Shown one piece after another: positions 37,709 to 42,469 of a stretch of 64,000 bases of DNA. The stretch lies in NCBI GenBank assembly GCA_027627225.1, contig CM051025.1, positions 71,401,069-71,465,068 on the forward strand. The letters are read 5' to 3'. The DNA comes from Congeria kusceri. Taxonomy: Eukaryota > Mollusca > Bivalvia > Myida > Dreissenidae. Each line of letters begins with the position of its first letter. Position 1 is the stretch's first letter. The notes below the pieces were generated by a model. It saw nothing but the letters and a program-made list of their open reading frames with translations. It was not told the DNA's origin and did not search any database. The position numbers and the translations under genes were made by a program.

Positions 37709-37842
37709 CTTAAATCAAGGACTCCCCAATAAATGTTCATTAACAATATGGAAAACAATAGATCTACCTGGTCTTCCTTCGGTCTGTTTAAGAGAGTAAC
37801 AGGATGTCATGTGTTTACACGAAATAAAACTGCGCCCGTTAA

Positions 37843-38313
37843 GGTTACAGTATACTAAATATTTCAGGTGTGCAATGCTATACTCTCTAAATAAATCAAC
37901 ACCATTTATTTGAAGACACAATTTTCTGTATAGTCACTTGCCATGACTTTATTTTTGAATATTTCTTTGTACGTGTGGTAGGAAAAACATTGTTGTGTAC
38001 TAAAAATTCACTGTTTCGCTTGAAGGTTGGAGACTACATGACGAGACTTTGACAGTTGGCAGTATACCTTCAACTGGAGAGTATCCGATAAAAAGATGGC
38101 CGTAAAACAGTGAACTTTGATTCGCGTCGAGTTCTTTCTTACATATCACATGACCTATCTTTTTTATTGTCTAAATCAATTCGGCTCGGAATGCTCTTTA
38201 AGAAAAGGTATGGTTATGAGGGTCTCTACGAGCAAAATGTTGAGTTTATTTTTTGTTGAATTTATTGCTTTTACATTGAATTTGTTAAGGAAATCTTTTA
38301 GTATATTGTGACC
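37843..38313. repeat. End repeat R1 of the composite transposon (471 bp)
   Basis: Inverted ends of about 17 bp, and an internal hairpin formed by 'ttcactgttt' (near 38010) and 'aaacagtgaa' (near 38107). By itself R1 looks like a MITE. It is preceded by TTAA and followed by TAAA. Confidence 0.85.
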
Positions 38314-38360
38314 TAAACTGACTTTGGGTTAAAATAAAATATCGTCTGCAAGTGCAAAAT

Positions 38361-38902
38361 ATGGATGAGAAAGCAGATTTTTGGTCATTTCTGAGCAAAA
38401 GAGTAGAAAATATGTGCATTAAATGCATCAATTCAGATTGTTTGATCTGGAATGGTTGTATTTCAAATAGTTCCTTACCCTATTATGGCCGAATGAGGGC
38501 TAAATTGCCTTCGGACATAAAATCAGAGACATACTTGGTTCACCGTGTAGCGTTAATGTGCTACATGAAGTCAGAATTGAACGCCAGGGACTCTGTGAGC
38601 CACTTATGCAACAATAGCTTGTGTGTTAAGCCTGAACATGTAAACATAGAGCCCCATTCCACCAACATGGAACGGCGGACATGTTTACAGTTCGGACAGT
38701 GCAGCGGGCATGGAACTGAGCCAGCCTGCATATTTGGTAAAAACATGAATACAACAAGCTTTATCACTTCCTTTTATTCATAGAAATACACTTAAAATAC
38801 ATAAATGCATGTTTTTTTTCATTTTATATCTATTTCTATTGGGTATTTTTGCCTTTTTCAGGTAGAGGAACGCCTGATGCTGACGCGAGGGCCACTTGTT
38901 AG
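38361..38902 (+). CDS. His-Me finger (HNH-like) endonuclease of the composite transposon
   Basis: Two exons, 38361-38736 and 38862-38902, are separated by a 125-bp GT-AG intron with a strong pyrimidine tract (tttttgcctttttcag), giving about 139 aa. The start is the first ATG in the frame. The central motif SHLCNNSLCVKPEHVNIEPH (about residues 90-109) is the zinc-binding loop of the zf-His_Me_endon family: His, paired Cys, then a P-E-H, followed by N-x-E-R-R. Further Cys and His (CSGHGTEPAC) follow before the short second exon. If the intron is not removed, the frame reads on to 38783. The role in transposition is unknown; it may nick DNA or RNA. It ends 57 bp from the stop of the convergent transposase. 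Confidence 0.7.
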
Positions 38903-38959
38903 AGGTCTCTTATGCCAAAACAGGTAATAATAACAATTTATTATCAGGTACACAATCAA

Positions 38960-40918
38960 CTAAGCATATTTATGATGCTTAAGGTGTGGAAGACTGTCAT
39001 AATCAGGTTTGGGGTCACTCATGCCCTTGCCGTAGTGTAATTCCTCATGCAGTTTGTATCGATAATTCCGCGTCCTGGCACGTAAAGCTCGTGCTTTGTT
39101 GGTAGCGGATGTTTGCTTTCGGTTAAGGTCGTTGCGGTCCTCATATGCTATCTGCTTAATAATCTTTGACCCCTGGGTAAGGTTAGCATTTAGTTCAGTG
39201 GTTTTTGCAATTACAGAGTCAGCATAGCCATTGTTTAATTTGTGAACCTGCCCGTGAATTCGACCTACACAGTTGCGTGAGAAAGTCACAGTTTTAGGAT
39301 TGACAGCTTGGTACGACCTGTTTACTGCTTCACTTTTTTGGGTTGTGGTTAAAAGTTTGGTAGCGTCAAGAGCAGCTGGACCTAAAACCATTTCAATGCA
39401 TTTTTTAAGGACTTGTTGGTCACTGTCAACCATTTTAACCTTGACATTGTCTGGCATGAAATTCTTAGCTTGCCTATTTGTACCAGCACAGACATAACTG
39501 TACTTTGCACAATGAGTACCGCAGTAACCACTGAAGCATAGAACAATGGTTGCGATTACATCAACCATGACCTTCTTTAGAACCTTGATGTCACCCTGGT
39601 GTTTATTGTGGGCAGCTTTAAGCTCAGCCATACACCTAGCTTTGACCGAGAGAGCGAACCGACTCCTGATATTAGACTTGGAATGACCCTTGAGCATGCC
39701 CTTTGAGAAAGGCGCTTTGTTGAGCTCGCGCTTCAGCGAGTTGCCTAGGTGCCTCAGATCCTTAAGATGACCCACATTGTGACCGTGAGAGTTACGAACA
39801 CCTTGGAATGCCCTACTGTCCCCATCACAAGTGAAATTTGCTATTTTGATGTCCTTAGAGATCTGGTCACCTAACAACCTATTCCATTTGCCTTCATCAC
39901 CTATTGGTTCCCTCTCTGAAACATTTGCAGAACAATGCCCCCTATGATTGGGGCACTGAACAGGTTTACCCTTATTCCTAAGCATTGATGCAGTCCTGCA
40001 TAGTTTATTTGCTACTTGTACCACTACAATTTGCTTGTTTCTGGTATTGTTTTCACACATAGTGCTTATGGCAATAGTTCCGGCTTGAAAGGGTGTCGCG
40101 TCAGAGTTAAAAATTGGATTGTTGTAGCAAGTGTCCCCTTCAACATTTACCTTAGAGGGATCTTTTTGACCAATTTTGGCATTTTCAGCAACTAAGTTTT
40201 CTCTAATCTGGTACATGCTTCTCTCATTTAGGGATTTAAGGGCAGTATTGACCTTATTTGCTTGTTTTTGCATAGCAAGTGGAGAGGGAGCAATGATATT
40301 GGTTGTGTTGAGAATTCTGCGGGAACCTGTGTTCCCAATAGAAGTACTTGCAACACCTATTTGGAAGCCTACATTGATCTGAGCTGCCTTTCTGGCCCTG
40401 GTACTTGATGGAACCTCATTGTAAAGCTTATAATGCTTGCCTACATATCTGCATCTTGTACATTTTAACCTTTCCTCCCAGCCTAAGCCCCACTTTATGG
40501 AAGCACTGCCGTCAATTACCAAGTCGCCCCTACATTTATCACTTCTTAACCTATGCTTTCTATTTTCAGAGGACATCATAGACTGGAGTAGGGCGGGGAC
40601 ATAGACCTTGTTCGTAAGTAAGTCGGGATGGACTTTTGATGGAGCAGGAACCCGTAACAGGTCTACATAGCGAATCTTGTTCGCTCTCGGACGCAAGGGC
40701 TTAGCTGGGGTTTGAGAGCCGTCTACATCCCGAAAAGTAAGAACCTTGTCATTGTAAGCTACCCGTGCTTCAAAGGATGACCTTTCTAACCTTACATAGG
40801 TTGTGTTGGAATTTGACCTTCTTTCATAATTATGTTTTTTCCCCTTCACCGGACTAGTCCCACCTCGTTTAAAACCAACATTGAGCAACTTTTTCTTTTG
40901 CTTGGTTATGAACCCCAT
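38960..40918 (-). CDS. Mutator-like transposase, intact 652 aa
   Basis: A single uninterrupted frame from ATG at 40916-40918 to a stop at 38960. The basic N-terminus (KQKKKLLNVGFKRGG) is followed by a stretch LVIDGSASIKWGLGWEERLK with C-x2-C (CTRC, about residues 153-156), then RKAAQINVGFQIGVASTSIG. The centre has CDGDSRAFQGV and LKDLRHLGNSLKREL, candidates for two catalytic Asp, and the C-terminal half is rich in Cys, His and basic residues. This matches the 'Mutator-like transposase domain' proteins that are numerous in bivalves. The assignment is from memory of that family. The frame is clean, so the enzyme may be active. It lies between the two 471-bp repeats and converges with the endonuclease gene. 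Confidence 0.75.
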   Translation of the reverse strand: MGFITKQKKKLLNVGFKRGGTSPVKGKKHNYERRSNSNTTYVRLERSSFEARVAYNDKVLTFRDVDGSQTPAKPLRPRANKIRYVDLLRVPAPSKVHPDLLTNKVYVPALLQSMMSSENRKHRLRSDKCRGDLVIDGSASIKWGLGWEERLKCTRCRYVGKHYKLYNEVPSSTRARKAAQINVGFQIGVASTSIGNTGSRRILNTTNIIAPSPLAMQKQANKVNTALKSLNERSMYQIRENLVAENAKIGQKDPSKVNVEGDTCYNNPIFNSDATPFQAGTIAISTMCENNTRNKQIVVVQVANKLCRTASMLRNKGKPVQCPNHRGHCSANVSEREPIGDEGKWNRLLGDQISKDIKIANFTCDGDSRAFQGVRNSHGHNVGHLKDLRHLGNSLKRELNKAPFSKGMLKGHSKSNIRSRFALSVKARCMAELKAAHNKHQGDIKVLKKVMVDVIATIVLCFSGYCGTHCAKYSYVCAGTNRQAKNFMPDNVKVKMVDSDQQVLKKCIEMVLGPAALDATKLLTTTQKSEAVNRSYQAVNPKTVTFSRNCVGRIHGQVHKLNNGYADSVIAKTTELNANLTQGSKIIKQIAYEDRNDLNRKQTSATNKARALRARTRNYRYKLHEELHYGKGMSDPKPDYDSLPHLKHHKYA

Positions 40919-41636
40919 TTTGACCAGATTGCCACCTTAAAAAAAGTCAAAGTACTTATTTTGTGCCCAAAATATGCAATTTTGTATTCCCTTAAACCTC
41001 TAAATGTGAGCAGGCAATGCAAATTGACCACCTGCTGCAGTTTAAAGGCACTCATGACATTATATACTAGAATATATAATTGGTGGCCTGTAATTAAAGA
41101 GGCTGCGACAAACAAGGTGCTTTAAAGATTTTACACTTTATTGGTTTGAAACAAGCAATTACTGGAAGCTGATTGATTTCTACACTTCAAAGTATCTTTG
41201 ATCTCCCATTTTGACTAATTCGTTAATTGTCTTGGATGAAATTGGAATTTTTTTTCTATAAAATTTACATTTTTGGGGTGATTTTTTTTAAAAAATACAC
41301 AAAAAATACATTATCAAAATGGCTTAGAGTAAACATATCTAACAAAGTCATTCTCTCCTCACCCCACATAAGCCCCCCATACATGTTTGTTTGGTTTGTT
41401 TGGGTATTTTGTCACAAATATTGCAAATATCAGCTTTAATTGTTAGAGGGACATTTAAGCTTCAAGACGCTTGAAATCACCGGCTTCCGACCAAAATCAC
41501 CTGTGTTTGAAAATATGAAATAAAATGGCCAAATGGACAGATATACAAGCCAAACTTAATATATTGGTGCAATATGCATGGGAAGATAATTATATGCAAG
41601 AAAAACTAATTTTAATGAGAACAAATTTCTCTTATA

Positions 41637-42107
41637 GGTTACAGTATACTAAATATTTCAGGTGTGCAATGCTATACTCTCTAAATAAATCAACACCATT
41701 TATTTGAAGACACAATTTTCTGTATAGTCACTTGCCATGACTTTATTTTTGAATATTTCTTTGTACGTGTGGTAGGAAAAACATTGTTGTGTACTAAAAA
41801 TTCACTGTTTCGCTTGAAGGTTGGAGACTACATGACGAGACTTTGACAGTTGGCAGTATACCTTCAACTGGAGAGTATCCGGTAAAAAGATGGCCGTAAA
41901 ACAGTGAACTTTGATTCGCGTCGAGTTCTTTCTTACATATCACATGACCTATCTTTTTTATTGTCTAAATCAATTCGGCTCGGAATGCTCTTTAAGAAAA
42001 GGTATGGTTATGAGGGTCTCTACGCGCAAAATGTTGAGTTTATTTTTTGTTGAATTTATTGCTTTTACATTGAATTTGTTAAGGAAATCTTTTAGTATAT
42101 TGTGACC
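41637..42107. repeat. End repeat R2 of the composite transposon (471 bp)
   Basis: Same orientation as R1. The two differences are 'gtatccggtaaa' for 'gtatccgataaa' and 'tctacgcgcaa' for 'tctacgagcaa'. It is followed by TTAA at 42108-42111 and preceded by 'cttata'. Confidence 0.85.
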
Positions 42108-42469
42108 TTAACATGTTTTAAAAATGGCTAATTCATTAAGAAGGGAGGTAATCGGGTAGTTTTGCAATGTCAAATCAATACACGAATTTATAGATGATCG
42201 AACATTTGGAAGCGGGTCGGAGTGGTGGGGCATTCACTTTCTACACAATCTGTGGAGACCATGTTATCTCAACAGCACCCGATGCTAACAGTTACGTTAC
42301 AGTAGACTAATTTATTTGAAACTTAGATCTTATTTAATTGGATAGATCTATTTTGAAAATCCAATATGAAATCCACGCAGTATGTGTCCTTGGATCGAGC
42401 ATCCTTGGATTCACTAAATAAATTGTTCGTGTAAACAAACACAAATAAAAACGACAACAATATAGTTAC

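What the first reader, a model, noticed from the sequence alone, without database searches (positions are those of the whole stretch)
37839..42111. DNA transposon shaped like a composite element: 471-bp direct repeats, each with inverted ends, around transposase and HNH-type genes
Seen directly: two 471-bp repeats in the same orientation, differing at two positions, TTAA outside the pair only, and two intact genes between them. DNA transposons normally have inverted ends; long direct end repeats are typical of LTR elements, which encode reverse transcriptase. Here the inner gene is a Mutator-like transposase. Each repeat alone looks like a MITE with its own inverted ends, as if two MITEs had captured a transposase, like bacterial composite transposons. 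The near identity implies recent movement or gene conversion.
Basis: partly seen in the sequence, partly recalled or inferred. Interest (0 to 1): 0.9.

Follow-up and report, generated by a model that had tools for sequence, protein, structure and literature searches.

The report
KolobokP transposon with paired direct ends
This is a copy of KolobokP, a published kind of animal DNA transposon whose two ends are long direct repeats; in this genome it also forms tandem arrays, some with runs that lack the end repeats, and these arrays likely grew in place by unequal exchange.

Summary
Two 471-bp direct repeats (two differences, each with 17-bp inverted ends) flank a 3,323-bp interior, with TTAA only outside the pair. 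The interior holds an intact 652-aa DDD/E transposase and, convergent to it, a 140-aa His-Me finger nuclease. It is not new in kind: it matches KolobokP (Kojima & Bao 2022, PMC9587614) in the features of that family that I could test. The "MITE capture" origin is not supported, and TTAA is only one of several T..A target duplications. The host is a 1.55-Gb genome; the nearest named transposases (up to 87%) are from Dreissena polymorpha, so it is probably a Dreissena-like mussel.

Beyond the paper, the genome shows how the element multiplies. There are 1,916 repeat|interior and 667 interior|interior junctions. On contigs C1 and C2, 14 of 56 loci are multimers (2-22 listed junctions). Units within four arrays differ by 0-2 substitutions, between arrays by 9-18. 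One deletion lineage sits at five loci with 7, 3, 2, 1 and 1 units. Runs of interior units lack the repeat, so nuclease cutting inside the repeat cannot be required for their growth. One locus carries two copies of one hetero-dimer, suggesting that whole multimers move.

The parts
37839..37842 (.). left target-site duplication TTAA
   Evidence: sequence; exact 4-bp duplications of type T..A at 11 of 13 independent sister loci in which both ends were seen
37843..38313 (+). left long terminal direct repeat (LTDR, R1), 471 bp
   Evidence: differs from R2 at positions 246 and 389
37843..37859 (+). left inverted end of R1, starts GG (Kolobok 5'-RR)
   Evidence: I19, I21
38297..38313 (-). right inverted end of R1, ends CC (Kolobok YY-3')
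   Evidence: I21
38314..41636 (.). internal region (INT), 3,323 bp, starts TAAA, ends TATA
   Evidence: tandem INT units elsewhere in the genome
38361..38783 (+). His-Me finger (His-Cys box, I-PpoI-like) nuclease ORF, 140 aa
   Evidence: PF05551 E 2.7e-10; S80 H81 C83 C88 H93 E97 N102 at the spacing of I-PpoI S97 H98 C100 C105 H110 E114 N119; homologues of 140 and 141 aa
38960..40918 (-). DDD/E transposase ORF, 652 aa, convergent to the nuclease
   Evidence: PF20700 E 8e-41; invariant D262, D365, D387 and H390 (DxxH), C307/C322/H325/C329 (CCHC), nearly invariant E530; AlphaFold2 pLDDT 82.9; ISCth4 and Hermes folds
41637..42107 (+). right LTDR (R2), 471 bp
   Evidence: identical to the six LTDRs of the C59 locus
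42108..42111 (.). right target-site duplication TTAA
   Evidence: sequence

Best explanation
The element is a KolobokP DNA transposon (LTDR-INT-LTDR) that likely moves as one unit when its own predicted DDD/E transposase joins the two outermost inverted ends to a short T..A target, and likely multiplies in place by unequal exchange between its tandem copies. Shown by sequence: paired 471-bp direct repeats with their own inverted ends, 4-bp target duplications outside only, intact transposase ORF and convergent His-Me nuclease ORF, solo repeats, tandem arrays sharing repeats, and interior-interior junctions, most of the listed ones 4 bp short. Inferred: (1) the inverted ends of a single repeat are also cut by the transposase, so a repeat can leave an array and leave an INT-INT scar; (2) INT homology alone then lets the array grow, because INT-only runs exist and the units of an array are nearly identical; (3) the outermost ends of a multimer can be used together, so a dimer can move whole; (4) the nuclease may start exchanges by cutting element DNA, but cutting inside the repeat is not needed for INT-only growth.
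For: Identity: the KolobokP features of PMC9587614 that I tested are met. Arrays: R|INT junctions 1,916; 97 of the 100 listed exact R|INT junctions lie on contigs C1 and C2 and, together with the INT-INT junctions listed there, form 56 loci, 14 of them with 2-22 junctions. Local origin: INT substitutions within arrays A1, A3, A4 and A5 are 0-2, between arrays A1-A7 9-18; A1, A3, A4 and A5 each carry 5-6 INT changes private among the 8 loci compared; the 18-bp-deletion lineage has 7, 3, 2, 1 and 1 units at five loci, with spacings of 3,776, 3,758-3,759 and 3,778 at the three multi-unit ones. INT-only growth: 667 INT-INT junctions, runs of up to 9 consecutive junctions at INT spacing among the 100 listed. 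Scar: 77 of 100 listed junctions have the length expected after loss of 4 bp. Whole-dimer copy: TTAA-[R-Ia-R-Ib-R]-TAAA-[R-Ia-R-I-R]-TAAA at C59, both dimers sharing a 750-bp deletion and one base change, all six R identical.
Against: No activity was measured. Unequal exchange, sister-chromatid repair and integration of circles leave the same arrays, so in-place growth is inferred from locus-specific variants. Concerted homogenisation of an older multimer would look similar. The assembly may hold duplicated haplotypes (L024/L025 are one insertion twice) or mis-joined arrays, and the units of array A2 differ by up to 10 short gaps, so counts and identities are not exact. Four of the seven fetched arrays (A1, A2, A4, A6) break off inside a unit at one or both sides, which simple insertion plus exchange does not explain. 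Some flank pairs do not match (noticed items). Placement inside KolobokP by a tree was not done.
Confidence: 0.9

Rival explanations
1. Two independent MITE insertions happen to flank a separate transposon, or two MITEs recently captured a transposase, as in bacterial composite transposons.
For: Each repeat has its own inverted ends, and solo repeats with TTAA on both sides exist (8 places).
Against: The inner borders are the same (TAAACTG and CTCTTATA or its last letters) at the junctions read (one array, L012-L018, has a 7-bp duplication just inside the left end of R); no target duplication lies inside the window pair; the combination is at 56 loci on contigs C1 and C2; the same architecture is published from 7 phyla (PMC9587614).
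Confidence: 0.03
2. Arrays are inserted ready-made (concatemers made by rolling-circle or circle-dimer replication) and move whole, instead of growing in place.
Confidence: 0.2
3. The His-Me nuclease drives multimer growth by cutting inside the LTDR (the induced unequal crossover model of Kojima & Bao).
For: The nuclease ORF is open in 25 of 26 INT units examined, against 16 of 26 for a transposase ORF of 646-652 aa (by locus, 8 of 8 against 5 of 8; units of one array are not independent), although it is a much shorter target for damage. I-PpoI DNA-contact positions R61, K65 and T74 are kept (R44, K48, T57), Q63 is not (R46).
Against: INT-only runs without any LTDR between units exist. The best match to the I-PpoI site inside R is no better than in Markov-shuffled sequence (10 against a mean of 9.4, maximum 12).
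Confidence: 0.25

Closest known systems
KolobokP (Kolobok superfamily), Kojima & Bao 2022, PMC9587614
   Same: LTDR-INT-LTDR, ~450-bp class LTDR with own inverted ends, RR/YY termini, short target duplications, DDD/E transposase with DxxH and CCHC, convergent I-PpoI-like nuclease, solo LTDRs, (LTDR-INT)n-LTDR multimers, INT-INT junctions with micro-deletion; the INT of one Mercenaria family also ends in TATA.
   Different: Scale: 667 INT-INT junctions and INT-only runs of up to 9 listed junctions (four abutted INTs is the most I saw in the paper's text), a locus with 22 listed junctions, and a duplicated hetero-dimer. INT-INT junctions without deletion were read at one locus (A6) and indicated by length at a second (C4:53.64 Mb); the paper describes a deletion as almost always present.
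Bacterial composite transposons and IS26 pseudo-composites
   Same: Direct terminal repeats that are mobile themselves; tandem arrays sharing a repeat (likeness drawn in PMC9587614).
   Different: Here the repeats hold no ORF of 70 aa or more; the transposase is in the interior.
IS256 family (ISCth4)
   Same: Closest solved fold by Foldseek; copy-out/paste-in goes through a circle with abutted ends, a form like R-TAAA-R at C59.
   Different: No circle was seen; Hermes (hAT) ties in the structure comparison; sequence identity is 10-13%.
LTR retrotransposons (including tandem TRIMs)
   Same: Direct terminal repeats, solo repeats, arrays sharing a repeat.
   Different: No reverse transcriptase among the Pfam matches of the two long ORFs; the repeats have 17-bp inverted ends and the element has a DDD/E transposase.

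Membership tests
KolobokP | Two long terminal direct repeats of ~450 or ~660 bp | tested here: met
   471 bp, two differences
KolobokP | Each LTDR has its own short inverted ends (11-18 bp) | tested here: met
   17 bp, 15 of 17 matching
KolobokP | Termini 5'-RR ... YY-3' | tested here: met
   GG ... CC
KolobokP | Target duplications of 3-4 or 4-5 bp outside the element or multimer | tested here: met
   window TTAA; of 17 monomer loci looked up, 14 right ends found, 13 independent; 11 exact 4-bp duplications, one 3-bp, one mismatched pair
[quoted passage not shown]
   D262, D365, D387xxH390, C461/C466/C470/C477, E530, C307/C322/H325/C329 in a 30-row alignment, all invariant or nearly so; RNase H-like model
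[quoted passage not shown]
   (PF05551); spacing of S, H, H, E and N residues; I-PpoI itself only at E 1.5 in a profile search; the AlphaFold2 model was too poor to use
KolobokP | Solo LTDRs and (LTDR-INT)n-LTDR multimers in the same genome | tested here: met
KolobokP | Transposase clusters with KolobokP in a tree | not tested
Kolobok superfamily (original definition) | TTAA-specific target duplication | tested here: not met
   this copy has TTAA, but sister copies have TATA, TAAA, TGCA, TGAA, TTTA; PMC9587614 states no strong target preference for KolobokP, so KolobokP as defined there is not excluded
LTR retrotransposon | Reverse transcriptase | tested here: not met
   only Mutator and zf-His_Me_endon matches in the two long ORFs of the element
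Bacterial-type composite transposon | Transposase encoded by the flanking elements | tested here: not met
   no ORF of 70 aa or more lies in or over R; the transposase is in INT

The most novel reading that the evidence does not exclude
A DNA transposon here turns itself into satellite DNA: once the transposase has removed one LTDR from a multimer, the scarred INT-INT junction spreads by LTDR-independent tandem growth, while the outermost LTDRs still let whole multimers hop as composite transposons of any length, so arrays are both locally grown and mobile.
Probability: 0.45. Interest if true: 0.6.

Novelty: new member of a known kind. Interest (0 to 1): 0.42.

Why it matters
KolobokP is described by its authors as unlike any other DNA transposon in having paired long direct ends, and how its multimers arise was left as an untested model. 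This genome holds many young, nearly identical arrays in which that question can be read from sequence: arrays carry locus-specific variants, INT-only runs occur without the repeat in which the nuclease was proposed to cut, and at one place a dimer appears to have been copied whole. If the reading holds, it links a cutting DNA transposon to the birth of tandem satellite DNA.

Tried and rejected
Considered and rejected: two separate MITEs (shared inner junctions at the loci read); LTR retrotransposon (no RT match); piggyBac (PMC9587614 sets Kolobok apart from it by the 5'-RR and YY-3' termini, seen here); Mutator proper (Pfam label only; the transposase has the Kolobok features of PMC9587614).

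I-PpoI site lead: abutted ends with TTAA (GTGACC-TTAA-GGTTAC) match a palindromised I-PpoI site at 12 of 16 places (best of 400 Markov shuffles 11), but the natural 15-bp site at only 9, and Kolobok ends must start RR anyway. I keep it as a weak lead. The natural site was read in passages of PMC6294500.

Structure: the nuclease model failed (pLDDT 31.4, 3 sequences) and was not searched. The transposase model fits ISCth4 and Hermes about equally, so the fold does not decide between cut-and-paste and copy-out.

Viral contigs: no relative. Paper searches: ('KolobokP') gave one paper each, PMC9587614; one search gave it and PMC12750733 (listing only). Of PMC9587614 I read text parts 1-5 of 6 (part 5 ends inside the reference list; part 6 not opened), not its supplements. 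PMC7780238: outline, abstract and passages. PMC13015404: passages. PMC6294500: passages.

Not completed: counts of all LTDRs and of internal LTDRs, the spread of the 41-bp (A4) and 15-bp (A5) deletions, and the protein search of the whole genome, because the genome tool was mostly busy. Unanswered: (answered later).

Dropped rows and limits: 3 of the 100 listed R|INT junctions (on C3) were left out of the locus count, which used exact junctions only and joined those under 12 kb apart. A2 is left out of the 0-2 statement: its units differ by 0-1 substitutions but by up to 10 short gaps; A6 gave one complete INT by my length filter; the window against A7 differs by 0-3 and is not in the 9-18 range, which is between arrays. 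Three of 17 monomer loci had no right end at the expected place; one of them (L028) runs into an INT-INT junction. INT-INT scars were judged by match length; letters were printed for 8 of the 100 listed.
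Full report
WHAT IS THERE. R1 (37843-38313) and R2 (41637-42107) are 471 bp and differ at two positions; R2 equals the six repeats of another locus, so both changes are in R1. TTAA stands outside both repeats and not inside. Between them lie 3,323 bp (INT) with a 652-aa ORF on the minus strand and a 140-aa ORF on the plus strand, tail to tail.

WHAT IT IS. Pfam gives 'Mutator' (PF20700, E 8e-41) and zf-His_Me_endon (PF05551, E 2.7e-10). 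A paper search found one paper that describes this very layout: KolobokP, 'Kolobok with Paired ends' (PMC9587614, read). Its defining features that I tested are met here: repeat length class, inverted ends within each repeat, RR/YY termini, short target duplications, solo repeats, multimers, a transposase with DxxH (D387-H390) and CCHC (C307, C322, H325, C329) in a 30-sequence alignment, and a convergent I-PpoI-like nuclease whose S, H, C, C, H, E, N residues fall at the I-PpoI spacing. The transposase model (pLDDT 82.9) has an RNase H-like core; the nearest solved folds are ISCth4 of the IS256 family and Hermes. A family tree was not made.

HOST. The nearest named proteins are from Dreissena polymorpha, up to 87% identical. 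The genome has 1.549 Gb in 1,071 contigs. A quagga mussel assembly has 1.61 Gbp and 16 chromosomes (passages of PMC13015404), and Dreissena rostriformis is in the KolobokP paper's species table. That the window is from a Dreissena-like bivalve is an inference; if it is quagga mussel, the family itself may already be catalogued.

AGE. Between loci, R differs by 0.56% and the first 1,490 bp of INT by 0.47% on average (30 and 28 loci), with few shared variants (2 and 5 columns with a minor letter in three or more loci). The window INT is identical to five other loci over the 1,496 bp read. This family expanded recently.

TARGETS. At 17 single-unit loci on contig C1 I looked for both ends: 14 right ends were at the expected place. 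L024 and L025 are one insertion present twice (flanks 99.8% identical over 1,043 bp), leaving 13 independent cases: 11 exact 4-bp duplications (TTAA 3, TATA 3, TAAA 2, TGCA, TGAA, TTTA), one 3-bp duplication, one mismatched pair (TATA/TTTA). So TTAA is not the rule of the target. Solo repeats with TTAA on both sides number 8; solos with other duplications were not counted.

ARRAYS. The R|INT junction occurs 1,916 times (up to 2 mismatches; the reversed control pattern 0). Of the 100 exact places listed, 97 lie on C1 and C2. With the INT-INT junctions listed there they form 56 loci: 42 with one junction and 14 with 2 to 22 (exact junctions only, so units with altered junctions are missed). Seven array loci were fetched and read. 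Inside arrays A1, A3, A4 and A5 the INT units differ by 0-2 substitutions, between arrays by 9-18; the window differs from the C59 units by only 0-3. Each of A1, A3, A4 and A5 has 5-6 INT changes private among the 8 loci compared, and A3, A4 and A5 have a deletion present in every complete unit. The 18-bp deletion of A3 occurs 14 times at five loci, with 7, 3, 2, 1 and 1 units, and each multi-unit locus has its own spacing. The 15-bp deletion of A5 (three units) also lies in a single-unit locus, L023, whose two ends were read. The reading is that one unit inserts, gathers local changes and is then multiplied in place.

INT-INT JUNCTIONS. A pattern spanning INT end and INT start finds 667 places. 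The 100 listed fall in 21 loci; judged by match length, 77 have lost 4 bp, 14 have lost 2, 5 have lost 3, 1 has lost 1, and 3 have full length (two of these three were read, at A6). Several loci show different scar lengths side by side, so repeats were likely removed more than once. But loci with long runs carry one scar length: 14 of 14 junctions at C1:15.46 Mb, 7 of 7 at C2:72.24 Mb, 18 of 18 at C5:1.6 Mb. Within the runs the spacing is that of INT alone, so the scarred junction itself was likely multiplied. The most abutted INTs I saw in the paper's text is four, and it proposes cutting inside the LTDR as a motor of multimer growth. Growth without any LTDR in the unit would mean that this cutting is not required in general.

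WHOLE MULTIMERS MOVE? At C59 the order is TTAA-[R-Ia-R-Ib-R]-TAAA-[R-Ia-R-I-R]-TAAA. Both halves share a 750-bp deletion in the first unit and one base change in the second; all six repeats are identical. The simplest reading is that one hetero-dimer was copied and inserted beside itself through its outermost ends, or joined through a circle with abutted ends; Ib then lost 1 kb. Abutted ends with 4 bp between occur at three places in the genome, of which only this one was read.

NUCLEASE. Its ORF is open in 25 of 26 INT units examined, including arrays whose transposase ORF is broken (16 of 26 have a transposase ORF of 646-652 aa; by locus 8 of 8 against 5 of 8). This fits, but does not prove, a role in array growth: the gene is short and units of one array are not independent. 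Its target is unknown; the resemblance of abutted ends to the I-PpoI site is weak.

AGAINST THE READING. Four of seven fetched arrays break off inside a unit, the assembly holds at least one insertion twice, and several flank pairs do not match. None of this is explained by insertion plus exchange alone.

VERDICT. The value added is the size and state of the arrays here, which speak to the open question of how they form.

Noticed in passing
42611-42841: Tandem array of 21-bp units built on the perfect palindrome TCGTAATTACGA, about 500 bp right of the element; a shorter array of a like motif at 25212-25285.
   Followed up: no
C2:54.84 Mb, C2:108.37 Mb, C59:0.92 Mb, L006, L024/L025: Mismatched 4-bp flanks (TTAA/TAAA, TATA/TAAA, TTAA/TAAA, TTAA/TAAA, TATA/TTTA): in all five, left is TATA or right is TAAA, the same letters as the INT borders, as if 4 bp were sometimes carried over from a donor inside an array. 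Small sample, and these letters are common targets anyway.
   Followed up: partly
C1:17.08 Mb (A1), C1:75.13 Mb (A2), C2:107.13 Mb (A4), C2:111.06 Mb (A6): Arrays that break off inside a unit at one or both sides.
   Followed up: no
L012-L018 (C1:15.49-15.54 Mb): The repeats of this array carry a 7-bp duplication inside their left inverted end, so single repeats there may no longer be excisable.
   Followed up: no
L024 and L025 (C1:29.78 and 34.16 Mb): The same insertion with 99.8% identical flanks at two places on one contig: a segmental duplication or uncollapsed haplotype.
   Followed up: partly
31494-32082: Exact tandem duplication of a 295-bp unit, 100% matches.
   Followed up: no
3931-3988 (-): tRNA-like match (RF00005, 34.1 bits), possibly a tRNA-derived repeat.
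   Followed up: no
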